Virus record (IMG/VR): IMGVR_UViG_3300025141_016717
Location: 1-32,216 of that record
DNA from: a virus
Direction: 5' to 3' (one strand)
DNA length: 32,216 bases
Positions 13,867-25,801 of this stretch are shown here, piece after piece. The notes beneath the pieces are model-generated. The model did not search any database. It was not told where the DNA came from and worked only from the letters and a program-made list of their open reading frames with translations. The position numbers and the translations under genes are program-made. Every line of letters starts with the position of its first letter. Position 1 is the stretch's first letter.

Positions 13867-14202
13867 CTATCCTCCATATTCGCTTATGGCAATCAACATA
13901 GTTTCTGTGACATTTATTTGGCAATTAGATTGATTGCTTGGACAATTTTTGCCCACCAACCTACCTGCCTTCGTACACGTTTGCACCTGCTTATCGCAGG
14001 TATTACACAGAAAGGTGAAGGCTTTTCTTTTTGTGTTTCTAATTACGTCTCCACTTGACTTCATTGATAGCTTGGCAAAGTCCGAGATATTGGGAAGTAC
14101 GTCTCCACAGGTGTTGCAAACAGCATTATTATTATCAACATCTAAAGAGCAGTCTGTTTGACCGTTACTTCTCCTGCATGTTGGATTACACCTAACAAGC
14201 AT
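13867..14202 (-). CDS. Cysteine-rich probable zinc-binding protein
   Basis: A 111-residue protein with ten cysteines (5, 9, 18, 29, 32, 66, 69, 76, 87, 94). Two identical CNTC knuckles (29-32 and 66-69) flank a spacer (LPNISDFAKLSMKSSGDVIR). Each knuckle is paired with a C-rich arm (RSNGQTDC and PSNQSNC), which suggests an internal duplication. The ATG overlaps the RecA stop (TAATG), with GGGAGG inside the last RecA codons, so translation is coupled. The primase starts 2 nt after its stop. It may act as a detached primase zinc domain, but the spacing does not match the usual DnaG zinc ribbon and no homology is certain. Confidence 0.8.
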   Translation of the reverse strand: MLVRCNPTCRRSNGQTDCSLDVDNNNAVCNTCGDVLPNISDFAKLSMKSSGDVIRNTKRKAFTFLCNTCDKQVQTCTKAGRLVGKNCPSNQSNCQINVTETMLIAISEYGG

Positions 14203-15353
14203 TATAACAAACCTCCCAGAAGAGGGTTTTCCTCAAGATCTTCAGACTCCTCTACACCTGCCGTATCTAATTCGTTTCCATTTATGTAGATATCTTTAAT
14301 CTGCTCAAGAAAACTATAGGCAAGGTGGTTGTCTAAAAAGTAATTGAATGTCGCATCTCTACCCTTAATCTTCACTTCATTGATCATGTAGCTCTGAGTG
14401 GTTATCCTCTGAATAATTCCATATTTTATTGCAAGATCAAAGATCTCGGCGTCTGTTTCGACAACTCCCTTCTGATATCTAATTTTATACTCTGCCACCT
14501 TAAAAGGTGCTCCAACCTTATTTTTTTGAACTTTAGCTCTAACCGTATGACCAACCCGCTCGCCGTCTTCATTTTTTATCACAGACTCTGCAGAGAATAT
14601 TGGGGCCATATTTATCATTAGGCTGCAAGCATGCTTTAAGGCTTTTCCTCCAGGTGAAGTTGTGGGATCTCCGAACATCTGCCCGAGATTAACTCTAACC
14701 TGATTAATGCCTATAAAGGCAACGTTTGCTTGAGCAACTACAGGAGTTAGCTTTTTAAGTTCTGTGGATAAGAATCTTGGAATTGGAGCCATATTAGCTT
14801 TACCTACAGCTGCAGCTATTTCAAGCGGAGTGTTGAGCACAGCTATAGAGTCTAGTACGATAATTCCAAGATTCTTAAACCTAGGATCACTACCTTCAAT
14901 CACATAATCGAGAATGCCCTTCATTGACTTGGAAACTTTTTTGGTCGTTTTATTTACCTTCACCTTTCCAATTAGACCCTCAAAGATAGCTTTGGCATCA
15001 TTTGTTTTAATAACAATAACCCTTGATGTATCAACCCCCTGCTTAGCCGCCCACTCTGGATCATAAGTATATTCGGCATCAATAAATAAAGCTGTATTTT
15101 CAGGATTTTTCTGCTGATACTCTCTGATTATTGATAGAGCCAACATAGTTTTTCCGGAACTTTCTTGTCCTGCTAGCTGAGTAATTCTACCTAGAGGTAC
15201 TCCTCCTATTCCAATAGCTTCATCAAGCTTTGGGCTTCCAGTGCTAACTGCCTCATACTTGGTTGCAATATTTCCATCAAAAAAGACGGTATCTTCTCCG
15301 AAAAACTTGGATATTTCTTTTTCCGCTTCTGACTGTGATACTTTTTTCGCCAT
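14202..15353 (-). CDS. recA: RecA-family recombinase
   Basis: A 383-residue strand-exchange ATPase close to bacterial RecA. It has Walker A GQESSGKT (residues 62-69), FIDAEYTYDP (90-99) carrying the catalytic Glu equivalent of E. coli E96, Walker B LGIIVLD (162-168), and loop L2 beginning NQVRVNLGQMFGDP (217-230) then TTSPGGKALKH. Compared with E. coli RecA there is an extra Lys-rich segment of roughly 25 residues (about 130-158) just before Walker B. The C-terminus is acidic and ends PLLGGLL. The ATG has AAGGAG 5 nt upstream. It follows groEL and ends at a TAATG overlap with the Cys-rich gene. It probably drives recombination-dependent replication and repair, working with the SSB encoded upstream. 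Confidence 0.95.
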   Translation of the reverse strand: MAKKVSQSEAEKEISKFFGEDTVFFDGNIATKYEAVSTGSPKLDEAIGIGGVPLGRITQLAGQESSGKTMLALSIIREYQQKNPENTALFIDAEYTYDPEWAAKQGVDTSRVIVIKTNDAKAIFEGLIGKVKVNKTTKKVSKSMKGILDYVIEGSDPRFKNLGIIVLDSIAVLNTPLEIAAAVGKANMAPIPRFLSTELKKLTPVVAQANVAFIGINQVRVNLGQMFGDPTTSPGGKALKHACSLMINMAPIFSAESVIKNEDGERVGHTVRAKVQKNKVGAPFKVAEYKIRYQKGVVETDAEIFDLAIKYGIIQRITTQSYMINEVKIKGRDATFNYFLDNHLAYSFLEQIKDIYINGNELDTAGVEESEDLEENPLLGGLL

Positions 15354-15362
15354 AATAACTCC

Positions 15363-17000
15363 TTAATATTTGTGTGAAAGCTTGCCTTCTTCTGGCGGTC
15401 TCCATCCCGCAGGAGGTTGCCAACTCGACGGGTTTTCTTTTTGCTCAGAAACTACCGCACCAGTATTTATAAGCAGCATTGAGATGCTGGCAGCATTTTC
15501 CAAAGCAGTTCTTGTAACCTTTTTCGGATCTATAACTCCCGCTTCTACCAAATCTTCAAACTCGCCCGTTGCAGCATTATATCCGAAGTTTGAATCGTCT
15601 GAGCTTAGAATTTTTTTGATTATTTCCTCTGGATCTAAATCTGCATTTTCAACAATTTGCCTTATAGGTCTTTGGCATGCATCTAAAATAACCCTTACGG
15701 CAGGCAGAACTCTATCTGGGAAAGCAGATGTATCAACCATTTTGGCGGCCCTCAGAAGGGCTGTTCCGCCGCCAGGAACGTACCCCTCTTCTATTGCAGC
15801 CTTAGTTGCGCATATCGCATCCTCAACCCTATCACCCTTCTCTCTTAGCTCAAGCTCGGTAGAGTAACCAACAGATATTACTGCCGCCTTGCTTTTTAAG
15901 AAAGATATCCGGTTTTTAGAGTCAACAAGCATCTGGTCAGATATTAACTTTTGTGAATCAGATTCATAGATGGCTATTTTTTCTGCAACCCTTTTTTCGT
16001 CTTTTCTTCCTTCAACAATTCTTGTTGAATATTGGTTTACAATAACTCTTTGTGCAAAACCAAGATCTGATACCTCCATGTTCACAACAGAACAATCAAC
16101 TCCAGCAACCTTTGTTCCAACAAGTGTTGATAAAGCGCTAACCCACTCGTCTTGAGTAACGCCAAGAACAGGGATTTTGACAGCAACAGCCTTTAATCTT
16201 CCAAGCTTGTTGTTTGCAACCAGAGTTTGCAGGACCTCTCGGTTTACATCTTTTGCTAAAATCAATATAGGTGTATTGGCCTCTGATAAAGCGTGAAGAA
16301 GCTTTAGGTAAAGGTTTAGGTTTGACATTTCTTCGTTACATATTAAAATCCTGCAGCCTTCAAACGTAACCTCTGCCGCTCCCTCAAGAGCAAAGGCTGG
16401 AGAGATCCAGCCGCTTTCCAGCTCTATTCCGTCTACTATATTTACAGAGTTACCTATTCCGGGGGATGCCTTTGCAACAACAGTTCCATCCATATCTACT
16501 TCCGAAAATGCCTGAGCAATACTTGATCCTAAGTCAGAGTCATTATTCGCAGATATAGTTGCTATATTTTTTAGATCATCAAAGCTTGACGCCTCGCTCT
16601 TCATAAGATCAAGCTTTTCAAATACAGCTTTTTTAGCCAACTCAACGCCCCTCCTTAGGTAAAGAGGAGAATAACCATTTGCGAGAAGCCTGCATCCATT
16701 TTTAAGAATTTCATCAGCCAAAACAGTTGCAGTAGTTGTTCCATCTCCAGCAATGGCGGCAGTTCTTCCCGCCGCCTCTTTGATAAGTTGGCAAGATAGA
16801 TCTTCAACAGGGTCTTCTAGAACAATCTCTCTAGCAACAGAGACTCCGTCTTTGGTTAAGACTGGAGCCCCTACAAATTTCCCCAAAATAACGTTTTTAC
16901 CCTGCGGCCCCATAGTTACCGCTACAGTTCTGGATAGCTTTTCTGATCCAGCCAAAATCCTTTCTCTAGCTGATTTGCTGTAAGTTAAATCCTTTGCCAT
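15363..17000 (-). CDS. groEL: GroEL-type chaperonin (Hsp60)
   Basis: A 545-residue group I chaperonin of full length. Conserved elements are TMGPQGKNVIL (29-39), TKDGVSVAREI (49-59, D51 for GroEL D52), GDGTTTATVLA (85-95, D86 for D87), RVEDAICATKAAIEEG with the D398 equivalent, VPGGGTALL, and NAATGEFEDLVEAGVIDPKK near the end. The ATPase equatorial domain therefore looks intact. The C-terminal Gly-Gly-Met tail of bacterial GroEL is replaced by a Trp/Pro-rich tail (SSWQPPAGWRPPEEGK). It starts with an AAGGAG SD 7-8 nt before the ATG and overlaps the RuvC-like gene by 35 nt. No groES is seen in the window. It probably folds phage proteins, using host or remote GroES, or none. Confidence 0.96.
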   Translation of the reverse strand: MAKDLTYSKSARERILAGSEKLSRTVAVTMGPQGKNVILGKFVGAPVLTKDGVSVAREIVLEDPVEDLSCQLIKEAAGRTAAIAGDGTTTATVLADEILKNGCRLLANGYSPLYLRRGVELAKKAVFEKLDLMKSEASSFDDLKNIATISANNDSDLGSSIAQAFSEVDMDGTVVAKASPGIGNSVNIVDGIELESGWISPAFALEGAAEVTFEGCRILICNEEMSNLNLYLKLLHALSEANTPILILAKDVNREVLQTLVANNKLGRLKAVAVKIPVLGVTQDEWVSALSTLVGTKVAGVDCSVVNMEVSDLGFAQRVIVNQYSTRIVEGRKDEKRVAEKIAIYESDSQKLISDQMLVDSKNRISFLKSKAAVISVGYSTELELREKGDRVEDAICATKAAIEEGYVPGGGTALLRAAKMVDTSAFPDRVLPAVRVILDACQRPIRQIVENADLDPEEIIKKILSSDDSNFGYNAATGEFEDLVEAGVIDPKKVTRTALENAASISMLLINTGAVVSEQKENPSSWQPPAGWRPPEEGKLSHKY

Positions 17001-17535
17001 TATCTAGCTCCTTGTAAATGTGTGTTAGCGCTACCGCTATAGCATCTGCCTCATCAAAGCATTCATCTTTTATATTGCCTGTTTTTTTCTTTCTCAATTT
17101 AAAATCATCAAAATTATTTAAGATAAAATCGAAAGCCTCTTCTTTTGAAGATATTTTCTTTCCAGCAATCTTAGAAAGAATTGAGCGAACTGTAATTACC
17201 GCATATGTATCTGGCTCAATATTAAGAGCGTTAATAGATCCGATAGAGCTGACCTCATTAAACACAGATAAAACAATGATGGTTCTAGCCGAACTTCTTC
17301 CTTTTGAAAATTTATTCGCGTAAGCCTCTATGGCAACAGAATCTGGCGATTTTTTAGACAAAAAATTAGTTATTTTATCCAAATAATCTGCAGCCCTAAC
17401 AGACAAAGATCCCTTGTTTGATTTTAGGGGTTTTATGTGACCGTACTCTTCTAGCTTATAGTTTTTTTCATCATAAGCTAGCACAGCCCATCCAACAGTA
17501 GAGGATGATATGTCTAATCCAATTACTTTTTTCAT
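16966..17535 (-). CDS. ruvC: RuvC-like Holliday-junction resolvase
   Basis: A 189-residue RNase H-fold endonuclease. The catalytic acidic residues are visible as D8 in VIGLDISSSTVGW, E70 in SVAIEAYAN, and D161 and D164 in CFDEADAIAVAL, matching the four-carboxylate RuvC arrangement. Length is close to bacterial RuvC (about 170). It would resolve branched recombination or packaging intermediates. The ATG at 17533-17535 lies 5 nt from a 13-bp hairpin, and no SD is present. Translation initiation must therefore be weak or depend on opening the hairpin. It overlaps groEL by 35 nt at its 3' end. Confidence 0.9.
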   Translation of the reverse strand: MKKVIGLDISSSTVGWAVLAYDEKNYKLEEYGHIKPLKSNKGSLSVRAADYLDKITNFLSKKSPDSVAIEAYANKFSKGRSSARTIIVLSVFNEVSSIGSINALNIEPDTYAVITVRSILSKIAGKKISSKEEAFDFILNNFDDFKLRKKKTGNIKDECFDEADAIAVALTHIYKELDNGKGFNLQQIS

Positions 17536-17536
17536 A

Positions 17537-17572
17537 ACAAAAGGCGCGTAAAGATTATACTTTACGCGCCTT
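17537..17572 (-). terminator. Intrinsic terminator after the SSB gene
   Basis: A perfect 13-bp inverted repeat, aaggcgcgtaaag (17541-17553) and ctttacgcgcctt (17560-17572), has the 6-nt loop attata. On the minus strand the stem leads into TTTTGTT. There is no T-run on the plus side. It would end most SSB transcripts while letting a fraction continue into the RuvC-like, GroEL and RecA genes, unless these have an unseen promoter. It also covers the position where the RuvC-like gene would need its ribosome binding site. Confidence 0.8.
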
Positions 17573-17598
17573 AAAAAAGCAGTTTATTTTAGAAAAAA

Positions 17599-18213
17599 CT
17601 ACTCAAAGTCAAAGTCAAAATCATCATCGGAAGCAGATGATTCGGACGCCTCAGGGGCAGAGCCTGACCACCCCATTCTCTCACAAACCGCTTCAGCAGT
17701 TGATGGAGAAATTGCTCGCTCTACATTGATGCGATCATTGAACTCCATGAATTTTGACTTAAACTCAGAGGAGAGGCTCTCCTTGGGGTTTGGCTGCACA
17801 CTATAAAGAGGCTGCTGTCCAGGTGATCCGCGCAGAATGGTGATATCGTACTGCGTTACTTTGCCCCAACGCTTATTGTTATACAGAGCCTTGATTGCAT
17901 TGTAGATCTGTGGGCCGACCTCAAGGAGTCGGAAACCATCGTCACTACGATCAAGAACCTTGATTAGCCATCGAGCCTGACGCTTAAAGCCAGAATCCTC
18001 AAGGCGAGAGACAAGCTCGGGATTATTAACCGGAGAGTTAATCTTACCCTTTTTGCCGTCCGACCCCACAATCCAGTGGATGTAAAACTGGACGGGATTG
18101 CCCATAATGCGAACTGTGTTTTCGCCCTCTTCAAGCCTCATGAAATCAGACTTTCCACCTGAACCCGAGTCTGCTGAATTCCAATCTACTTCACCAAATA
18201 CCATGTTTGACAT
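17599..18213 (-). CDS. ssb: Single-stranded DNA-binding protein, gp32-like
   Basis: A 204-residue SSB. The core carries the OB-fold signals of phage gp32-type SSBs: LEEGENTVRIMGNPVQFYIH (residues about 27-46), RWLIKVLDRSDDGFRLLEVG, then IYNAIKALYNNKRWGKVTQY, and a PLYSV strand. The end is an acidic flexible tail (SSASDDDFDFDFE) typical of SSBs, where it recruits partner proteins. Unlike T4 gp32 no zinc-binding Cys set is visible. The ATG has AGGAG 7 nt upstream. Its codons are clearly more GC-rich (many AAG, CTC, GGC, ATC) than those of neighbours, which fits a very highly expressed gene. A terminator follows directly. It would coat the strands used by DnaE, RecA and the possible UvsY-like protein. 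Confidence 0.88.
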   Translation of the reverse strand: MSNMVFGEVDWNSADSGSGGKSDFMRLEEGENTVRIMGNPVQFYIHWIVGSDGKKGKINSPVNNPELVSRLEDSGFKRQARWLIKVLDRSDDGFRLLEVGPQIYNAIKALYNNKRWGKVTQYDITILRGSPGQQPLYSVQPNPKESLSSEFKSKFMEFNDRINVERAISPSTAEAVCERMGWSGSAPEASESSASDDDFDFDFE

Positions 18214-19166: not shown

Positions 19167-19660
19167 GAGCCTACCCGCCTAACTGCTGCTCCAGTTTTTA
19201 AGCGGTTTTCTTTGGCAATTCTCTTTAATCTCTGTATCCTAAGGTCTTCGTCAATGTCTTCTGCAGATATTGACTCTGATGATTTAACCATCTCATCTCT
19301 AACCTGGCTTCTTATATCCTCATAAGACTCTTCGGGAGGAGACTCTTCGGAAGGAGACTCTGAGGCGGAAGTATCTTCAACTGCCTCATCAGCAGTCTGA
19401 CCTTCTGGAGCGTCCTCTTTTTGCCCTGGAGCAGTTGGTGGAAAAAACTCAACCAGCATAAAAAGAGCTATATCAAAAATATCATTTGAATCTAAATTTC
19501 TTGCAAAATGCTGATTAGTTAATTTATTTTTAAATAAGTCCAACCTTCTTTTATGAAGGTCTCCAAGAAGGGCGCTTCCGCATGCTGGACAACAATTATT
19601 AGAAAGCGCATGGCGCATATTCTGTTTTACAGCAAACTTGCAACTTCTACATTCAATCAT
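19163..19660 (-). CDS. Zinc-ribbon protein with disordered acidic middle
   Basis: A 165-residue protein. The N-terminus is a zinc ribbon with C4/C7 and C24/C27 (IECRSCKF and CCPACGSALLG). A helix follows (HKRRLDLFKNKLTNQHFARN), then a Pro/Glu/Ser-rich disordered segment partly built from a 15-bp repeat, and a basic C-terminal helix (DEDLRIQRLKRIAKENRLK). It overlaps the last dnaE piece by 4 nt (ATGA), with GGGAG 6 nt upstream. A nucleic-acid or replisome accessory role is plausible from the ribbon and location, but no family is identified. Confidence 0.8.
   Translation of the reverse strand: MIECRSCKFAVKQNMRHALSNNCCPACGSALLGDLHKRRLDLFKNKLTNQHFARNLDSNDIFDIALFMLVEFFPPTAPGQKEDAPEGQTADEAVEDTSASESPSEESPPEESYEDIRSQVRDEMVKSSESISAEDIDEDLRIQRLKRIAKENRLKTGAAVRRVGS
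19326..19370. repeat. 15-bp tandem repeat in the zinc-ribbon gene
   Basis: Units gactcttcgggagga (19326-19340) and gactcttcggaagga (19341-19355) differ at one base. A third, more degenerate unit starts gactctgagg at 19356. They encode the Ser/Glu/Pro-rich linker of the zinc-ribbon protein. Confidence 0.75.
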
Positions 19661-20802
19661 ATTTTTCTCCCATAAACTCTTTCTAAAGATGATAGCGCTA
19701 GGTCTTTTTGCCCCATATATTCGTTCACTTTACATATAGCCTTTATCGGCAAACCCTCTTTTAAGATTGCTTTATACTTATCATAATCATCTGCCCAAAG
19801 GGTTAAGCCGCATGTATCGCCACTAACGTCTTCAACAAGATATTTAGCAAACTTTCTGCCTACATTTTTTCCATTTTTGATCTTAAACTCTTTGATCTTC
19901 GTTTTGATTATAGCTTCAACTTTAACCCTGGCACCATTATTTTGATTTTCGACATCCTTAATTGGAGTTACAAACGGCCCTCCGGTGAAGAAGGTTGAAA
20001 AAACCTCGTGCAAACTGCCAGATATCGATCGCCCAAGAACCTCTCTCTCATTTAGAAGAATATCCTTTCTGTCCCATTCGTCCTCTGAAGCTGCATAGGT
20101 AAGTCCGGAAACTATATTCTTAAACCTATCAGATTCAACCGAAATATCAAAGTCATCAAAGTAAGTATCTCGAATGTCTTTTGTTATTTTCTTTATTTCT
20201 GGATGCGCTTCTAAAATATCTTTCTCAACTTCTTTTTTTACTGCGTTTTTCGCTTTTGATCGATACTTTTGATAATTATCATGCATATCCATCCTTGTAA
20301 GGCTAAAGCTATCTAGAGCACCCGCCTTTGATAGAGATTGAATAACTGTTTTGCCAACAGTTCTGCTGTTATTCTTTGATACAAATTCCAAAAAGGAGGT
20401 GTATGGCTGCATCTTAACAATTGATTCAATTGCTTTTTCTCCAACACCTTTAATTGCAGAAAGCCCTGTTGTAATAGTCATGCCCTCCAGAACCCTGTAG
20501 TTGCCAGCCGAGTCATTAATATTGGGATTCTCTATTTTTATCCCCATACCCTTACAGCCCGATAGGTACTCTTGAGTCTTGTCAGAGTTTGGGTCTTCAG
20601 AATTTAGAAGAGCACACATAAATTGTGTTGGATAGTGACACCTTAACCAGGCAGTATAAAAGGATATATGTGAGTAAGAGACTGAGTGTGAGTTGGAAGT
20701 TAAAATTCCATTCGCGAGATAATACTGGTGATCAGGGTGATTAACCTCAAGATCATAAGTATGTTCTTCGCCTACACTCTCTACAGAGATGATTTTAGTC
20801 AC
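19657..20802 (-). CDS. dnaE: DNA polymerase III alpha, C-terminal piece, with split-intein C-half
   Basis: A 381-residue chain. Residues 1-37 are the intein C-half. Residues 38-381 resume DnaE at SHSVSYSHISFYTAWLRCHY, matching the E. coli segment [21 protein letters not shown]. A helix-hairpin-helix (LSAIKGVGEKAIESIV) follows, then a charged helical region, and an OB-fold at about 285-375 (VKVEAIIKTKIKEFKIKNG, then YLVEDVSGDTCGLTLWADDY). The start is GTG at 20800-20802, with AAGGAG 6 nt upstream lying in the last codons of the nuclease gene. Function requires trans-splicing to the middle piece. No terminal clamp-binding motif was recognised. Confidence 0.93.
   Translation of the reverse strand: MTKIISVESVGEEHTYDLEVNHPDHQYYLANGILTSNSHSVSYSHISFYTAWLRCHYPTQFMCALLNSEDPNSDKTQEYLSGCKGMGIKIENPNINDSAGNYRVLEGMTITTGLSAIKGVGEKAIESIVKMQPYTSFLEFVSKNNSRTVGKTVIQSLSKAGALDSFSLTRMDMHDNYQKYRSKAKNAVKKEVEKDILEAHPEIKKITKDIRDTYFDDFDISVESDRFKNIVSGLTYAASEDEWDRKDILLNEREVLGRSISGSLHEVFSTFFTGGPFVTPIKDVENQNNGARVKVEAIIKTKIKEFKIKNGKNVGRKFAKYLVEDVSGDTCGLTLWADDYDKYKAILKEGLPIKAICKVNEYMGQKDLALSSLERVYGRKI
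20692..20802 (-). other. Split intein 2, C-terminal half (IntC), 37 residues
   Basis: Residues 1-37 of the C-terminal DnaE chain carry intein block F (TYDLEVNHPDHQYYLANG, H25) and block G ending ILTSN. Asn37 would be cyclised, and the +1 extein residue is Ser38. The penultimate residue is Ser instead of the usual His. Its partner is the Ser1 N-half at 21768-22091. Confidence 0.9.
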
Positions 20803-20805
20803 TAG

Positions 20806-21888
20806 CTACTCCTTTGTAAGTATATTTTTTTCGAGGTATTCTTCGCCAAGATAATAAACACCAGGCACGCCATTGTCCAGTATTTCCCTAACCTTATTTA
20901 AGGTACGCAGCCTAAAGTCGTTGGCAGACTTTCTGTAGTCGTATTCCGTATGCGATACTCTTATCAGAAGATAGTCTTTATCTAAAGAGAACTTGTCTAG
21001 CTCTTTATCCTTTTTCTTATTAAGATTTAGTTTTTCATCGCCAAAGATCGGATCGAAATGGTGCGGACCATCTAACTCTATGATTATTTTATTTTCTTCG
21101 TCAATCACATCGACTTGCTTTCTGGAGGTCTTGTTTGTCAAAAAATGTTTGTTCGAGTTGACCTGCTGATTTCCCTTGAATAAAGGGTTGATTGATTGGG
21201 CGAAAGCTCGAAGTCTTTTTTCAGGTTTAGAGGTCCATGTTTTATGCATAGCCCTTGTGCATTTATTATAAAAATCTTCGGGATTGTTATCTCTCCAGTT
21301 TTTCAGCCTTTCCGCTCTTGCAGCTTGAACATCAGCTCTTGCGGATGTCTTCTTTGCCGTCTCGCTTTGATTCTCCCGAAAGATAGCTGCCTTATTCGGG
21401 TCATTCCACGCTTCCTTCAGCATAGAAGCTCTTCTTTTTCTTTCTTCGGGATTGCTCATAATGGAATCGCTAATTTTCTTTCCACCTTCAACCCAACCAG
21501 CCCTTACTTTGGCCTGCTCATCGGCAGAAAGCTTTGCAAACCAAGAACCATTTTTCTTGCCGGCCTCCTTCTTCTTTTCTATTGTCATTGGAGCCATATA
21601 ACCTCCATATAGTCCAACATACTGATCAAGAGATATTTCTTTGTGCTCTTTTTCTATATGCTGCTTTAATGTTCTTGATTTATGATCGCAAAGAGAGCAT
21701 TGAATAATCTCGCCCATCTCCAAAGCTTTTTGAATGTAAGTGACACACTTTGCCTTATGTTTTCTTAGTCCTTGCTTTGTTTTTGACTCTTTTCCGCAGA
21801 AACAACGATCTCCATGTTGGTTTCCAGAATTAGCCACAGCGGAAGCATCTCCCCGGTCGTGGTTCTGAACTTGTGATTCTTTGTGCAT
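20806..21888 (-). CDS. Free-standing homing endonuclease-like protein, Vsr-like (EDxHD-type)
   Basis: A 360-residue protein between the middle and C-terminal dnaE pieces. Two zinc fingers come first: C29, C31, H44, C48 (CFCGKESKTKQGLRKHKAKC) and C64, C67, H77, H82. Helical NUMOD-like DNA-binding repeats follow (KKEAGKKNGSWFAKLS, then NPEERKRRASMLKEAWNDP). The C-terminal nuclease has E271, D273 and H276/H277 (IIIELDGPHHF), then D294/D298 in KKDKELDKF. This is the ExDGxH...D pattern of very-short-patch-repair-like homing endonucleases known from fractured split-intein loci. The ATG at 21888 (GGAG 10 nt upstream) lies 124 nt inside the IntN2 coding sequence in another frame. A GTG at 21837 is an alternative. 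Either way the frames overlap. Confidence 0.88.
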   Translation of the reverse strand: MHKESQVQNHDRGDASAVANSGNQHGDRCFCGKESKTKQGLRKHKAKCVTYIQKALEMGEIIQCSLCDHKSRTLKQHIEKEHKEISLDQYVGLYGGYMAPMTIEKKKEAGKKNGSWFAKLSADEQAKVRAGWVEGGKKISDSIMSNPEERKRRASMLKEAWNDPNKAAIFRENQSETAKKTSARADVQAARAERLKNWRDNNPEDFYNKCTRAMHKTWTSKPEKRLRAFAQSINPLFKGNQQVNSNKHFLTNKTSRKQVDVIDEENKIIIELDGPHHFDPIFGDEKLNLNKKKDKELDKFSLDKDYLLIRVSHTEYDYRKSANDFRLRTLNKVREILDNGVPGVYYLGEEYLEKNILTKE

Positions 21889-23354
21889 GTTACAGTTTCT
21901 CCAGTTTCTAGCGTAATTTTCAGTACGGGCAGCTTTCCGTGGTAATGGTTATCCTTGACTTCGATTAGGATATCTTCGCCTGTTTCCTCATCCCTTGAGC
22001 GTACAAAGTCGCCAGCTTTAACGTCTTGAATATTAAGGGTTAAAGGCTCCCCGCTTCTTATTATACTCACTTTCTCTGAAAAGTGCAATGATTTATTAAA
22101 CGCATAGCCGCCAAGAGGTTCGATATAACGCTTCCAGATCAGGCAGGCCGTTTTGTAGTCCATGTCAGAATGCTTCATGCAATCCCTGACGAAATTAGCT
22201 TCTGTCTTTAGAACCAAATCAGGGTCTTTGCCTTTTAGTTTGCTTATCTTTCTGAGGGAATCAGCCTGATTAAGGTCCCAGCCAGCACAATCCTGAGCGA
22301 TAAATAGGGCCTGCTCTTCATAGACCAAAATACCGTATGTTTTCTTTAAAGCCCTTTCTAGCTTTGGGTGGTCATACTTTGTAGGCTCAATCCCAAGCCT
22401 TCTTTTTGCATACTTCTTTCTTTCTTCAGGCAAGCAAGAGGGCCTTCCGATTGCATTGATATCAGATATATCTTCAATACACTTCGGCTTTAGCTTCATA
22501 CAAAATGGTGTAAGCGAAGATTCAAGCTGAAAGACACCGCCCGTCTCTCCTCTTCCTAGCATTTCGTAAGATTCTTGATCGTTTAGATCAATATCGTCAA
22601 CAGATAACTTTTTACCAGTCGATGACTCGATAAGCCTAAAGGTATTCTCTATAACCGTTAGCGTCTTTAGGCCAAGAAGATCCATTTTAATTAAGCCATT
22701 TATTTCGCACCTATTTTTCTCCCACTGAGTCACAACACCGCCCGTCGGATCAATCCTTAGCGGAACAGTCTTGTGAAGAGGCTCCTCTCCAATAACCATT
22801 CCGGCAGCATGAACTGACCAGTTTCGAGTAAGATTCTGAAGCTTATTTCCATACTCATATAACTCTGGATATTTCTGCATATAGGCATCAAATTGAGAAC
22901 TATCGCGCATAGCAGACTCAAGGGTTTTTGCATCTGGCATAATTGAAGTAATGTGGTTTGCAATTTTAAATGCAGTAGTTTTATCACCGCCTAAGCGAAG
23001 ACTTCTTGCGACATCCTTGATCACAACCTTTGGCGAAAGGGTGCTCCAGTTTGAAATTGAGGCAACCCTATCTTCTCCATACTTTTCTTTAATGTACTCT
23101 TTAACCAGAGATGGATCAGAAAAGTCAGTATCAATATCTGGAAAAGAAGTTTTTTGATTATTATGGAATCTTTCAAAGATTAAGTCGTACTCAATTGGGT
23201 CCACACTAGTTGTTCCCGTAAGGTAAGCCACAAGAGATCCAGCGGATGAGTTATGTACGGCGAGGCCCTCAATATTGTATGAATGCGTATTCTCTACCGT
23301 AAGGTCATGCACATAGCCTTTATAGGAAACATATTTTTTGCTTTTTAATTTCAC
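21765..23354 (-). CDS. dnaE: DNA polymerase III alpha, catalytic middle piece, flanked by intein halves
   Basis: A 529-residue chain: intein C-half (1-35), DnaE extein (36-421), intein N-half (422-529). The extein starts SSAGSLVAYL, the conserved core start. It contains the catalytic Asp pair D73 and D75 in FPDIDTDF and the third Asp, D225, in KMDLLGLKTLT (E. coli D401, D403, D555). It also has NWSVHAAGMVIG and YGILVYEEQALFIAQDCAG. The usual RPGP motif reads RPSC (AIGRPSCLPEE). It ends at EPLGGYAFNK. The start is GTG at 23352-23354, overlapping the nuclease stop as GTGA, with GGGAG upstream. On its own it has no PHP domain and no OB-fold, so activity presumably needs double trans-splicing. 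Confidence 0.95.
   Translation of the reverse strand: MKLKSKKYVSYKGYVHDLTVENTHSYNIEGLAVHNSSAGSLVAYLTGTTSVDPIEYDLIFERFHNNQKTSFPDIDTDFSDPSLVKEYIKEKYGEDRVASISNWSTLSPKVVIKDVARSLRLGGDKTTAFKIANHITSIMPDAKTLESAMRDSSQFDAYMQKYPELYEYGNKLQNLTRNWSVHAAGMVIGEEPLHKTVPLRIDPTGGVVTQWEKNRCEINGLIKMDLLGLKTLTVIENTFRLIESSTGKKLSVDDIDLNDQESYEMLGRGETGGVFQLESSLTPFCMKLKPKCIEDISDINAIGRPSCLPEERKKYAKRRLGIEPTKYDHPKLERALKKTYGILVYEEQALFIAQDCAGWDLNQADSLRKISKLKGKDPDLVLKTEANFVRDCMKHSDMDYKTACLIWKRYIEPLGGYAFNKSLHFSEKVSIIRSGEPLTLNIQDVKAGDFVRSRDEETGEDILIEVKDNHYHGKLPVLKITLETGETVTCTKNHKFRTTTGEMLPLWLILETNMEIVVSAEKSQKQSKD
21768..22091 (-). other. Split intein 2, N-terminal half (IntN), 108 residues, Ser1
   Basis: It begins at residue 422 of the middle chain as SLHFSEKVSIIRSGEPLTLN (block A-like), directly after YAFNK. 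Block B is present as TVTCTKNHKFRTTTG, with T70 and H73. The first residue is Ser, not Cys. Placing the junction here restores the DnaE sequence FNK-SHSVSYSH exactly. The 3' 124 nt are also read in another frame by the nuclease gene. Confidence 0.88.
23250..23354 (-). other. Split intein 1, C-terminal half (IntC), 35 residues
   Basis: Residues 1-35 of the middle chain show block F (YVHDLTVENTHSYNIEG, H24) and the classical end LAVHN, with His34 and Asn35, then Ser36 as the +1 residue. The half is basic at its start (MKLKSKKYV) while its partner IntN1 is strongly acidic. This suits charge-assisted association of split inteins. Confidence 0.93.
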
Positions 23355-24286
23355 TGAATTCTCCCAATATATTGAAGTTCTTTTTTCTTTGAAAACAGTT
23401 TGATTCTATTTTCTGAGTGCAGCTCTTTGCACAACGGCTTTATTTTGGTGGATCGCTTAAGTAACAACCCTATTTGTTCAGCTTCCGCTTCATCTATAAA
23501 CCAGTAGGAGTCGAAGTTATTTTCTTTTATAAATTTCTCAGCCGCTTCTACTTTGGCCGCATTTTTGCTCTCATCATAATAATGAGGCACAATGCTCTTA
23601 ATCTCAACAATCATCTTTTTAGTGTCAGAGATTAATACGTAATCCGGATAATAATATCTTAATCTTCCGTTATGATTATATTTAATGTAAAACTTGCATT
23701 TACGAACAACCTTATATTGCGGCTGATTTTCCAACCAGATTAAGAAGCATAATTCATAAGAGCTTCCAAATTCAATTACTCGGCCATCTTTGAAAGTATA
23801 TTCTCCAGAAAGAGCATGAGAATTTTTGCCCCTTGCTTTTGCAACTTTTTCCTTATATTCAGGATTCTCGTATTTAGAGAGCATCGTCTGTCTCATCTGC
23901 TCTAATTTTTCTGGGTTTTCTCTCCAAAACTTTGATACGCCTAAGGCGTTTTTTCTTTTTTGCTCTGGAGTTGACTGTATCTTTTTTTGAGCCTTAGAGT
24001 TTGCATCTCTCCACTCCTCCCGCTTGTATATTTCAAGGCTCCCACACTTCAAGCAAACCTCTTCTCTGACAAGAGTTCTTTTTGCTAAGTGTTTTGTAGA
24101 AATCCTTGATTCAGAATTACAGACGATACAGTTTACTTTACAAAAAATATTAACACTTCTCGGGTAAGTTGTTTTTGCCCACAAGCTAAAAGGCAGATCT
24201 TGATTTTTAAAAATCAATTCAATTACTTCTTCTGAATTATTCAGCAACTTTCTACGTCTCGCAAACCTTTGCAGTTCTTCTCTCAT
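23351..24286 (-). CDS. Free-standing homing endonuclease-like protein, PD-(D/E)xK type
   Basis: A 311-residue protein between the N-terminal and middle dnaE pieces. A zinc-knuckle pair (C53/C56 and C78/C81: CIVC and CLKC) is followed by NUMOD3-like helical repeats (TPEQKRKNALGVSKFWRENP, then NPEYKEKVAKARGKN). The C-terminal nuclease shows E178 (GSSYELCFL), P214-D215 (YYYPDYVL) and E228/K230 (IVEIKS), a PD-(D/E)xK arrangement. The start chosen is ATG at 24286, with GGAGAG 5-7 nt upstream. A longer frame from ATG 24322 adds 12 residues but lacks an SD. Its stop overlaps the GTG of the middle dnaE piece. It would cut the intein-free dnaE allele to spread the split intein, inferred from location. 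Confidence 0.85.
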   Translation of the reverse strand: MREELQRFARRRKLLNNSEEVIELIFKNQDLPFSLWAKTTYPRSVNIFCKVNCIVCNSESRISTKHLAKRTLVREEVCLKCGSLEIYKREEWRDANSKAQKKIQSTPEQKRKNALGVSKFWRENPEKLEQMRQTMLSKYENPEYKEKVAKARGKNSHALSGEYTFKDGRVIEFGSSYELCFLIWLENQPQYKVVRKCKFYIKYNHNGRLRYYYPDYVLISDTKKMIVEIKSIVPHYYDESKNAAKVEAAEKFIKENNFDSYWFIDEAEAEQIGLLLKRSTKIKPLCKELHSENRIKLFSKKKELQYIGRIQ

Positions 24287-24349
24287 CTTGACTCTCCATA
24301 TAGGGCCGGCAAGAGGCTCCATACAGACATATGGTTTAACTAGTATAAT

Positions 24350-25801
24350 TTAAACTTCTTTTACATCATCGTCACCGGTTAGCTCATCGGCCTTTACCCA
24401 GCCCCGATTTGTAGTGAAAAACTCATGGTCCTTAGTGCATGTAATGGTTTTTCCGTTTTCAAACCCAAGCTCTACAAGCTCTTCATCAACCTTATAAGAT
24501 AAGGTGTCAGTTACCTTGTTAACAGAATCATCATGAGAAACTACCTCCTCACCTACACGTATTTTTTCAACTGCCTTCATCGATCCATCCGCCAGTTGAA
24601 CCATAGATCCAGGAACAAAGCACCCTCTTGCAGGGCCTACAGGCATTCTTTGTTTAGCCCAATTGATATAATCGGAGACAATAAGCATATATGAGGAAAA
24701 GTTTTTGTCCTCAAGAACTGATAGCTCCATTTTAACCCTATCCCAGTAAAGCTCTTTGTCTTCGCCGGAAAGGTGGGATAACTTCTCCTTAAAGCCCTCA
24801 ATGCATTTATATCGAAGGTATGACTTATCCTCCGCTATAGTGGATCGACCCCTCTCTTTCCACTCGGAAAACTCCTCGTAATCAGCCTGATTCTCAACTG
24901 GGAAAGACGGCAGTCTTGGACCGTCCGGCTTAATATAATGTGGGTCTTGACATGAATTCATAATTTTTATGGTATTCTGCATCCCAACTTCAGCAATATC
25001 GCGCCCAAAGAAGTCTGTAATCTCCTCATGTGTTTTGAGGTACATATCTTGAACTCCATACCTAAATCGGTCGGGATCATCTACAGCTTTTTTATCCTTA
25101 ATCGCAAGCATAAAATCGTGATATTTTGCGTGATCTTTATCACGATAGTGTGCGTCACAAGTTATAACATAAGGTATATCATAATCTCTTGATATTTTAA
25201 GAAGAGATTGGTTTAGCTTCTGCTGATTTACTTCTTTTCCATTTTTTTGCACAGCATGCAGCCTGTGCGGCTGAAGCTCTAGAAAAAATCTATCATGAAA
25301 TATAGATTTAAACATAGAGATATACCTTAGAGCGTTTGCTTCATCCTGTTCTGTAATAAGCGTTTTTGCAATCAAGCCATTTGAGCATGCCGTAAGAGCG
25401 ACTACCCCCTCGTTATGGTCCCGAATATGCTCCCATGTTATCCTTGGGGTTTTCTTGCCCATATATCCCGACACCTGGTTTTGAAAGGCAAGATAATTTA
25501 GGGTTAGAATGTTTTCATAACCAACCTCATTCTGAGCAAGAAGAACCAAGTGGTGGCTCTTCCTGGCCTCAAGGTCATCTGCAAAATAAGCTTCCATGCC
25601 AGGAATTAGCTTTACACCGGTTTCTTGAGATGCAAGATAAGCATCATACATGGCTGTCATTGTACCATGATCTGTAATAGCTACAGCGGGGTGGTCAACC
25701 TCCTTTGCTCTTACAAATAAGTCCTTGACATCGTTCATCCCGTCTAGCGGACTTCCAAGCTCTGTATGATTGTGTAAAGATATGAATGGCCCTTTAGGCA
25801 T
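24350..25801 (-). CDS. dnaE: DNA polymerase III alpha, N-terminal PHP piece, with split-intein N-half
   Basis: A 483-residue chain. Residues 1-393 are DnaE: the PHP domain (SLHNHTELGSPLDG with H10 and H12, ITDHGTM with D44 and H45, GMEAYF with E70, KSHHLVLLA, TACSNG with C139, CDAHYRDKDH with D216 and H218), then the start of the palm ending KQRMPVGPARG. Almost all PHP metal ligands are kept, unlike in E. coli DnaE, so PHP-type proofreading is possible. Residues 394-483 are the intein N-half. The ATG has AAGGAG 8 nt upstream. The gene lies just after a terminator, so it may have its own start of transcription, though no clear promoter is seen. Confidence 0.95.
   Translation of the reverse strand: MPKGPFISLHNHTELGSPLDGMNDVKDLFVRAKEVDHPAVAITDHGTMTAMYDAYLASQETGVKLIPGMEAYFADDLEARKSHHLVLLAQNEVGYENILTLNYLAFQNQVSGYMGKKTPRITWEHIRDHNEGVVALTACSNGLIAKTLITEQDEANALRYISMFKSIFHDRFFLELQPHRLHAVQKNGKEVNQQKLNQSLLKISRDYDIPYVITCDAHYRDKDHAKYHDFMLAIKDKKAVDDPDRFRYGVQDMYLKTHEEITDFFGRDIAEVGMQNTIKIMNSCQDPHYIKPDGPRLPSFPVENQADYEEFSEWKERGRSTIAEDKSYLRYKCIEGFKEKLSHLSGEDKELYWDRVKMELSVLEDKNFSSYMLIVSDYINWAKQRMPVGPARGCFVPGSMVQLADGSMKAVEKIRVGEEVVSHDDSVNKVTDTLSYKVDEELVELGFENGKTITCTKDHEFFTTNRGWVKADELTGDDDVKEV
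24353..24622 (-). other. Split intein 1, N-terminal half (IntN), 90 residues, Cys1
   Basis: It begins at Cys394 of the N-terminal dnaE chain with block A (CFVPGSMVQLADGSMKAVEK, then RVGEEVVSHD). Block B is TITCTKDHEFFTTNRG with T63 and H66 of the half. It ends ELTGDDDVKEV at the stop. By hand count it carries about 10 basic and 20 acidic residues. Splicing to the 23250-23354 half joins GPARG to SSAGSLVAY, as in continuous DnaE. Confidence 0.95.

What the first reader, a model, noticed from the sequence alone, without database searches (positions are those of the whole stretch)
20806..24286. Two different nuclease folds serve equivalent positions in one gene
Both breaks hold proteins of the same overall design (zinc knuckles, NUMOD-like repeats, C-terminal nuclease). 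One ends in a PD-(D/E)xK site (YYYPDYVL, IVEIKS) and the other in a Vsr-like ExDGxHH site (IIIELDGPHHF). This points to separate acquisition or domain swapping, and the PD-(D/E)xK type is the less expected partner of a split intein.
Basis: partly seen in the sequence, partly recalled or inferred. Interest (0 to 1): 0.7.

Follow-up and report, generated by a model that had tools for sequence, protein, structure and literature searches.

The report
Two split inteins breaking one polymerase gene
A phage DNA polymerase gene is broken twice by mobile split inteins, each carrying its own DNA-cutting enzyme; the two enzymes come from different families but share one protein fold, so this is a well-resolved example of a known arrangement rather than a case of two unrelated folds.

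Summary
Phage dnaE (minus strand) is encoded in three pieces by two split inteins. HEN1 (23351-24286) lies in break 1 and HEN2 (20806-21888) in break 2.

The headline does not hold. HEN1 is a TnsA-like PD-(D/E)xK nuclease and HEN2 a Vsr-like EDxHD nuclease: different families, but confident models show the same restriction-endonuclease-like core.

Relatives support separate acquisition, not recent domain swapping. Site 2 carries only EDxHD enzymes in 18 other phage contigs. Site 1 carries PD-(D/E)xK enzymes in L225 and L226 and a decayed copy in L231; it also occurs as an unsplit mini-intein and a LAGLIDADG intein. Near relatives have empty sites (L085 both, L002 site 1). Between the window and L002, element 2 is far less diverged at synonymous positions than flanking dnaE, so it moved on its own.

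Likely mechanism: endonuclease homing of each element, with two trans-splicing reactions restoring DnaE. Cutting and splicing are inferred, not tested. This is the known "fractured gene" kind; the recurring PD-(D/E)xK partner at one site, and a methyltransferase plus putative restriction gene inside one split intein (L231), are the newer parts.

The parts
24623..25801 (-). DnaE N-extein (PHP domain and start of the polymerase alpha domain), ends ...GPARG
   Evidence: ORF and Pfam; boundary mapped
24350..24622 (-). IN1, N half of the site-1 split intein (90 aa, Cys1, TKDH block B), stop at 24350
   Evidence: Pfam Intein_splicing 2.4e-10; co-linear with unsplit inteins of L093, L222, L223
23351..24286 (-). 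HEN1, free-standing endonuclease gene (in-frame ATG also at 24322); TnsA-like PD-(D/E)xK C-terminus
   Evidence: phrog_33911 5e-27; DUF7487 above its cut-off; model and fold search
24044..24130 (-). HEN1 CxxC...CxxC putative zinc-binding module
   Evidence: sequence
23819..24022 (-). HEN1 helical repeat region (putative DNA-binding)
   Evidence: sequence; weak similarity to the HEN2 repeats
23354..23845 (-). HEN1 nuclease domain; E190, D227, E240, K242 predicted active site
   Evidence: alignment, AlphaFold2 pLDDT 88, best PDB match TnsA
23250..23354 (-). IC1, C half of the site-1 split intein (GTG start overlaps the HEN1 stop, GTGA), ends VHN
22092..23249 (-). DnaE middle extein, SSAGSL...GYAFNK
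   Evidence: Pfam DNA_pol3_alpha and finger domains; strong purifying selection
21765..22091 (-). IN2, N half of the site-2 split intein (108 aa, Ser1, TKNH block B)
20806..21888 (-). HEN2, free-standing endonuclease gene; its ORF overlaps IN2 by 124 bases in another frame; Vsr-like EDxHD C-terminus
   Evidence: phrog_559 and phrog_9084; family alignments
21643..21804 (-). HEN2 two putative zinc modules (CxC...H...C at 21745-21804; C2H2 at 21643-21699)
   Evidence: sequence; Cys invariant and His conserved in 17 aligned sequences
21259..21483 (-). HEN2 helical repeat region
   Evidence: sequence, alignment
20809..21291 (-). HEN2 nuclease domain; E223, D260, E271, D273, H277, D294 conserved
   Evidence: AlphaFold2 pLDDT 89; best PDB match Vsr 1cw0
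20692..20802 (-). IC2, C half of the site-2 split intein (GTG start with AAGGAG upstream, inside the 3' end of HEN2), ends TSN
19657..20691 (-). DnaE C-extein, SHSVSYS... to the end

Best explanation
This is a phage dnaE gene invaded at two conserved sites by two independent mobile elements. Each element is a split intein with a free-standing homing endonuclease gene between its halves. The three DnaE pieces are translated separately and joined by two trans-splicing reactions (inferred). Each endonuclease would cut an allele lacking its element, and repair from the invaded copy would spread it (inferred). HEN1 is TnsA-like PD-(D/E)xK and HEN2 is Vsr-like EDxHD: two families of one restriction-endonuclease-like fold, recruited separately and each kept at its own site over long evolution. 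Shown here: the anatomy, empty and occupied alleles, unsplit and decayed versions, site-specific nuclease class, shared fold by model, and independent transfer of element 2. Not shown: splicing, cutting, target sites.
For: Near relatives give clean alternative alleles: L085 (92% in the middle extein) has both sites empty; L002 has site 1 empty and site 2 filled by an 86% HEN2. Split inteins align end to end with unsplit ones: L093, L222 and L223 at site 1, L222 at site 2. At site 2, 18 other contigs carry EDxHD enzymes and no other class. At site 1, L225 and L226 carry intact PD-(D/E)xK enzymes and L231 a broken one. Models: pLDDT 88 and 89, pTM 0.82 each, same core order; best solved matches TnsA (E 7.6e-4) and Vsr (E 5.2e-4). 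Mobility of element 2: third-position identity to L002 is mostly 0.8-0.9 in the element and about 0.5 in both flanks; dS is 0.46 in HEN2 and over 2 in dnaE. Decay series at site 2: truncated HEN in L090, frameshifted HEN in L223, none in L093 and L018. DnaE and HEN2 evolve under purifying selection.
Against: Nothing here tests cleavage or splicing. The two models could not be superposed on each other; sharing of the fold rests on element order, solved matches and a common hit (1y88). Direct profile comparison of the two nuclease domains is not significant (hhalign E 0.056). No raised identity was seen in the exteins next to element 2, although homing usually converts some flanking sequence. 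Only three intact site-1 enzymes are known, and they share just 26-30% identity.
Confidence: 0.86

Rival explanations
1. The two endonucleases are unrelated folds that converged on the same position and role.
For: The sequences are too far apart for a significant direct match (hhalign E 0.056), and the active-site motifs differ (ExK against ExD...H).
Against: Both models have the same helix-three-strand-helix-strand core with the E and D residues in the same elements. Best solved matches, TnsA and Vsr, share one fold superfamily, and 1y88 is found with both. Papers say the two motif families are related.
Confidence: 0.06
2. One endonuclease is derived from the other by swapping of the nuclease domain within this gene, leaving a common N-terminal DNA-binding part.
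For: Both have zinc modules, helical repeats and a C-terminal nuclease; the repeats are weakly similar. phrog_22215 matches the repeats of an EDxHD enzyme (L012) and the nuclease side of PD-(D/E)xK enzymes, so modules have been mixed at some time.
Against: Repeat similarity is only 23% over 65 residues, the zinc modules differ in type, and each class is already fixed at its own site in very distant phages. A recent swap would leave one N-terminus clearly close to the other site's enzymes.
Confidence: 0.1
3. The dnaE gene is dead: the two insertions broke it and the pieces are decaying.
For: Three ORFs instead of one.
Against: Exteins show dN about 0.06-0.09 with dS over 2 or saturated. Splice residues are intact at both sites. 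Each downstream piece has its own start and ribosome-binding sequence. The same broken layout recurs in many phages.
Confidence: 0.03
4. The nucleases no longer act as homing enzymes and persist only because the restart signals of the downstream dnaE piece lie inside their genes.
For: The IC1 and IC2 start signals lie in the 3' ends of HEN1 and HEN2, so deleting the nuclease endangers the polymerase.
Against: Several relatives have lost the nuclease and kept the split intein (L090, L093, L018). Active-site residues are invariant in the HEN2 family, and element 2 has moved more recently than its flanks diverged.
Confidence: 0.1

Closest known systems
'Fractured genes' with split inteins and free-standing endonucleases (Dassa et al. 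2009, doi 10.1093/nar/gkp095; not in the library, contents from memory, cited in PMC7090010 and PMC3653736)
   Same: A conserved replication gene broken by a split intein with an endonuclease gene between the halves; Vsr-like endonuclease family as partner; phage setting.
   Different: Two such breaks in one dnaE gene, and a TnsA-like PD-(D/E)xK enzyme at one of them. I could not check whether that paper lists dnaE or this nuclease class.
EDxHD (Vsr-like) homing endonucleases, I-Bth0305I type (PMC3943268)
   Same: HEN2: extended protein with DNA-binding modules and a Vsr-like nuclease; conserved E, D, H, D residues.
   Different: HEN2 lies in a split intein rather than a group I intron; its N-terminal zinc modules and repeats are its own.
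PD-(D/E)xK homing endonuclease I-Ssp6803I (PMC3943268)
   Same: HEN1: PD...ExK active site on the restriction-endonuclease-like fold.
   Different: PMC3943268 describes this class as compact and multimeric; HEN1 is elongated and modular, and its nuclease is TnsA-like (Pfam 0.0016, below cut-off; fold E 7.6e-4).
T4 gp4-like head completion nucleases and TnsA
   Same: HEN1 nuclease aligns with phage head completion proteins over the S..E, PD, ExK and KxEAA positions; TnsA is its best solved fold match.
   Different: Those are virion or transposition proteins without the zinc module, repeats or intein context of HEN1.
Cyanobacterial DnaE split intein (Ssp/Npu DnaE; from general knowledge)
   Same: Split intein in dnaE, a few residues from site 2 (the cyanobacterial site lies just before CFNKSH; here between FNK and SHS).
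   Different: Different insertion point; the cyanobacterial halves are far apart in the genome and carry no endonuclease.

Membership tests
Fractured gene (split intein plus free-standing endonuclease) | Host ORF interrupted by intein N half, a separate ORF, then intein C half | tested here: met
   both sites
Fractured gene (split intein plus free-standing endonuclease) | Middle ORF is a homing-type endonuclease | tested here: met
   family and fold matches; activity not tested
Fractured gene (split intein plus free-standing endonuclease) | Intein-free alleles exist in relatives | tested here: met
   L085, L002 and others
Fractured gene (split intein plus free-standing endonuclease) | Protein trans-splicing | not testable with these tools
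   splice residues intact only
EDxHD (Vsr-like) homing endonuclease (HEN2) | Conserved E, D, H, D residues | tested here: met
   E223 in over 90% of sequences; D260, H277, D294 invariant; assignment of these residues to the family name is from general knowledge
EDxHD (Vsr-like) homing endonuclease (HEN2) | Vsr-like fold of the nuclease domain | tested here: met
   1cw0, E 5.2e-4, probability 1.00
EDxHD (Vsr-like) homing endonuclease (HEN2) | Site-specific double-strand cutting at the insertion site | not testable with these tools
   needs an assay
PD-(D/E)xK nuclease, TnsA-like (HEN1) | PD...(D/E)xK residues on the restriction-endonuclease-like core | tested here: met
   D227, E240, K242 invariant; TnsA E 7.6e-4
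PD-(D/E)xK nuclease, TnsA-like (HEN1) | Pfam TnsA-like N model above its curated cut-off | tested here: inconclusive
   HEN1 19.4 bits, below 26.5; relative L226 28.1 bits, above
NUMOD-containing endonuclease | Match to a NUMOD model | tested here: not met
   no NUMOD match in HEN1 or HEN2 at E<1

The most novel reading that the evidence does not exclude
Split inteins at a given site of phage dnaE are bound to one nuclease class over long times (PD-(D/E)xK at site 1, EDxHD at site 2). TnsA-like PD-(D/E)xK enzymes are an undescribed regular partner of split inteins, and once an intein is split its gap becomes a safe harbour in an essential gene for other selfish or defence cargo, as in L231 (adenine methyltransferase plus putative restriction gene).
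Probability: 0.45. Interest if true: 0.62.

Novelty: new variant of a known kind. Interest (0 to 1): 0.42.

Why it matters
It is an unusually complete natural series for how a gene becomes fractured. At the same two dnaE positions there are empty sites, unsplit mini-inteins, a LAGLIDADG intein, split inteins with an intact-looking endonuclease, and split inteins whose endonuclease is decayed or gone. That makes the order of events in split-intein origin testable. It adds a TnsA-like PD-(D/E)xK class to the endonucleases found in split inteins, gives two natural split inteins that must work without crosstalk in one protein, and suggests that a split intein gap can shelter unrelated cargo.

Tried and rejected
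HEN1 as a single query found no relatives: none in viral contigs, none in phages at E 1e-3, and its PHROG family was absent from 34 related records. A pseudo-alignment with loosened motif letters, used only for searching, found distant PD-(D/E)xK proteins. Searching with the intein itself was what revealed the site-1 relatives.

Sequence search of solved structures gave nothing useful for either protein, alone or as a profile.

Two different folds: rejected on the models and fold matches. Recent domain swap: rejected on weak repeat similarity and stable site-specific classes. Dead polymerase: rejected on selection.

The HEN2 start codon inside IN2 was examined as a sign of selection on the overlap. 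The A base is kept in most loci, but also in loci where that frame is closed by stops, so it is not decisive.

The 2009 paper on fractured genes is not in the library.
Full report
What is there. The window is a 32,216-base phage contig from IMG/VR. On the minus strand, dnaE (DNA polymerase III alpha) is encoded in three pieces: 24350-25801, 21765-23354 and 19657-20802. Piece 1 ends in an intein N half after GPARG and piece 2 begins with an intein C half before SSAGSL. Piece 2 ends in a second N half after GYAFNK and piece 3 begins with a second C half before SHSVSYS. HEN1 lies in the first gap and HEN2 in the second. The likely HEN1 start is the ATG at 24286, with a GGAG sequence upstream, which is the end coordinate in the finding. 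The HEN1 stop overlaps the GTG start of the next dnaE piece (GTGA), and the last dnaE piece has AAGGAG before its GTG. HEN2 overlaps the coding region of its intein N half by 124 bases in another frame.

Are the motifs real. HEN1: a CxxC...CxxC module, a helical repeat region, then a nuclease domain with E190, D227, E240 and K242. The D, E and K are invariant among 30 aligned domains, including phage head completion nucleases. HEN1 passes the Pfam cut-off for DUF7487, and the related L226 enzyme passes the cut-off for the TnsA-like N domain. HEN2: two zinc modules, repeats, then a domain in which D260, E271, D273, G274, H277, F278, D294 and R310 are invariant in 21 sequences.

Same fold or not. 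The two nuclease domains were modelled with alignments (pLDDT 88.1 and 89.0, pTM 0.82 each). Both have the order helix, strand, strand, strand, helix, strand, with the conserved acidic residue in the first helix, the D in or at the second core strand and the E-x-K or E-x-D in the third. HEN1 has extra short strands. Best solved match of HEN1 is TnsA, followed among others by Bax1, a Holliday junction resolvase and R.BspD6I small subunit. Best match of HEN2 is Vsr, then AbaSI and others. The archaeal protein 1y88 is in both lists. TnsA and Vsr are both restriction-endonuclease-like (general knowledge), and two papers in the library state that PD-(D/E)xK and EDxHD active sites are related. The direct profile comparison is not significant (E 0.056), so the relation is remote, and the two models could not be superposed with the tools at hand.

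Empty, unsplit, occupied and decayed alleles. L085, 92% identical in the middle extein, is empty at both sites; L002, 92%, is empty at site 1 and has an 86% identical HEN2 at site 2. At site 1, L093, L222 and L223 have an unsplit intein without endonuclease that aligns end to end with the window's split halves. L122 has an in-frame intein with a LAGLIDADG domain, and L013 has the tail of one, weakly supported. L225 and L226 have split inteins with intact PD-(D/E)xK enzymes of the HEN1 family (phrog_33911). L231 has a split intein with a broken HEN1-like gene. At site 2, L222 is unsplit; 18 other contigs have split inteins with EDxHD enzymes. L223 has a frameshifted enzyme, L090 a truncated one, and L093 and L018 none. 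No EDxHD enzyme was seen at site 1 and no PD-(D/E)xK enzyme at site 2. Because several nuclease losses left the halves split, the unsplit forms are more likely to be the state before fracture; this is inference.

Mobility. Between the window and L002, third-position identity at conserved residues is mostly 0.8-0.9 in IN2, HEN2 and IC2 but about 0.5 in the exteins on both sides and 0.5-0.6 in neighbouring genes. dS is 0.46 in HEN2 and above 2 in dnaE. Element 2 therefore has a more recent common ancestor than the genes around it. HEN2 dN/dS is 0.15, so it is under selection. For element 1 the evidence of mobility is presence and absence only.

How it most likely works. Each nuclease cuts the intein-free allele of an incoming or co-infecting phage and repair copies the element in (inferred; not tested). 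Three DnaE pieces are made and two trans-splicing reactions restore the polymerase (inferred from intact splice residues, purifying selection and recurrence).

Separate acquisition or swapping. The shared plan of DNA-binding modules tethered to a nuclease is common among phage homing enzymes (PMC3943268). The repeats are only weakly similar (control). phrog_22215 matches repeats of an EDxHD enzyme and nuclease parts of PD-(D/E)xK enzymes, so modules have been mixed in the distant past. A recent swap between these two sites is not supported.

Is the nuclease choice surprising. In the same intein family in other phage genes, the gap holds GIY-YIG (L227, L235), HNH (L258), EDxHD-like (L232, L233, L236) and PD-(D/E)xK-like enzymes (L246, L262) (some of these are motif readings only). 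Split inteins thus take varied nucleases, but each dnaE site keeps one class. A viral structure library also holds many HEN1-like nucleases, some named homing endonucleases or nuclease-associated modular domain proteins.

Place among known things. This is the fractured-gene arrangement described in 2009 (not readable here; contents from memory). New to me are two such elements in one dnaE, the recurring TnsA-like PD-(D/E)xK partner at one site, and the cargo in L231. Whether the 2009 set contains a PD-(D/E)xK case could not be checked.

Noticed in passing
L231:3440-5835: Between the halves of a site-1 split intein lie a broken HEN1-like gene, a D12-class adenine methyltransferase (PF02086, 2.6e-29) and a 332-aa ORF with an HNH-like EIDHKYPY motif, which together look like a restriction-modification pair; the second ORF matches no Pfam, NCBIfam, PHROG or PDB entry.
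   Followed up: partly
L222:3822-8045: In a 335-kb phage contig, dnaE is a single 1408-aa ORF containing unsplit mini-inteins at both sites 1 and 2, the unfractured counterpart of the window's gene.
   Followed up: yes
L225:6295-6980: The L225 dnaE carries what looks like a third split intein, at a different site (...GRHR|CMQPD... and ...THN|TSWPDID), with almost nothing between its halves.
   Followed up: no
L229:3-1178: A 392-aa ORF built of repeats (EKDPIxFLKxFSEKDWAxPYLExARKSAA) lies just upstream of the site-1 intein C half, where an endonuclease would be expected; the contig begins inside it.
   Followed up: no
L005 to L084: Most other phage dnaE loci of the scan are intein-free at both sites; occupied sites are concentrated in a few groups.
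   Followed up: partly
window 20806-21888 / 21765-22091: HEN2 begins inside the coding region of its own intein N half in another frame; in most relatives the ATG is kept, although some have stops in that frame and must start later.
   Followed up: partly
L105:4197-5369: A free-standing 391-aa phage protein with helix-turn-helix-like repeats and a RYYYPDF...IVEIKS nuclease, a strong DUF7487 member (4e-20), looks like a homing enzyme outside any intein.
   Followed up: no
window 14202-18213: The phage encodes its own GroEL-like chaperonin (15363-17000) and RecA (14202-15353), and by eye a possible Holliday junction resolvase (16966-17535) and single-strand binding protein (17599-18213).
   Followed up: no
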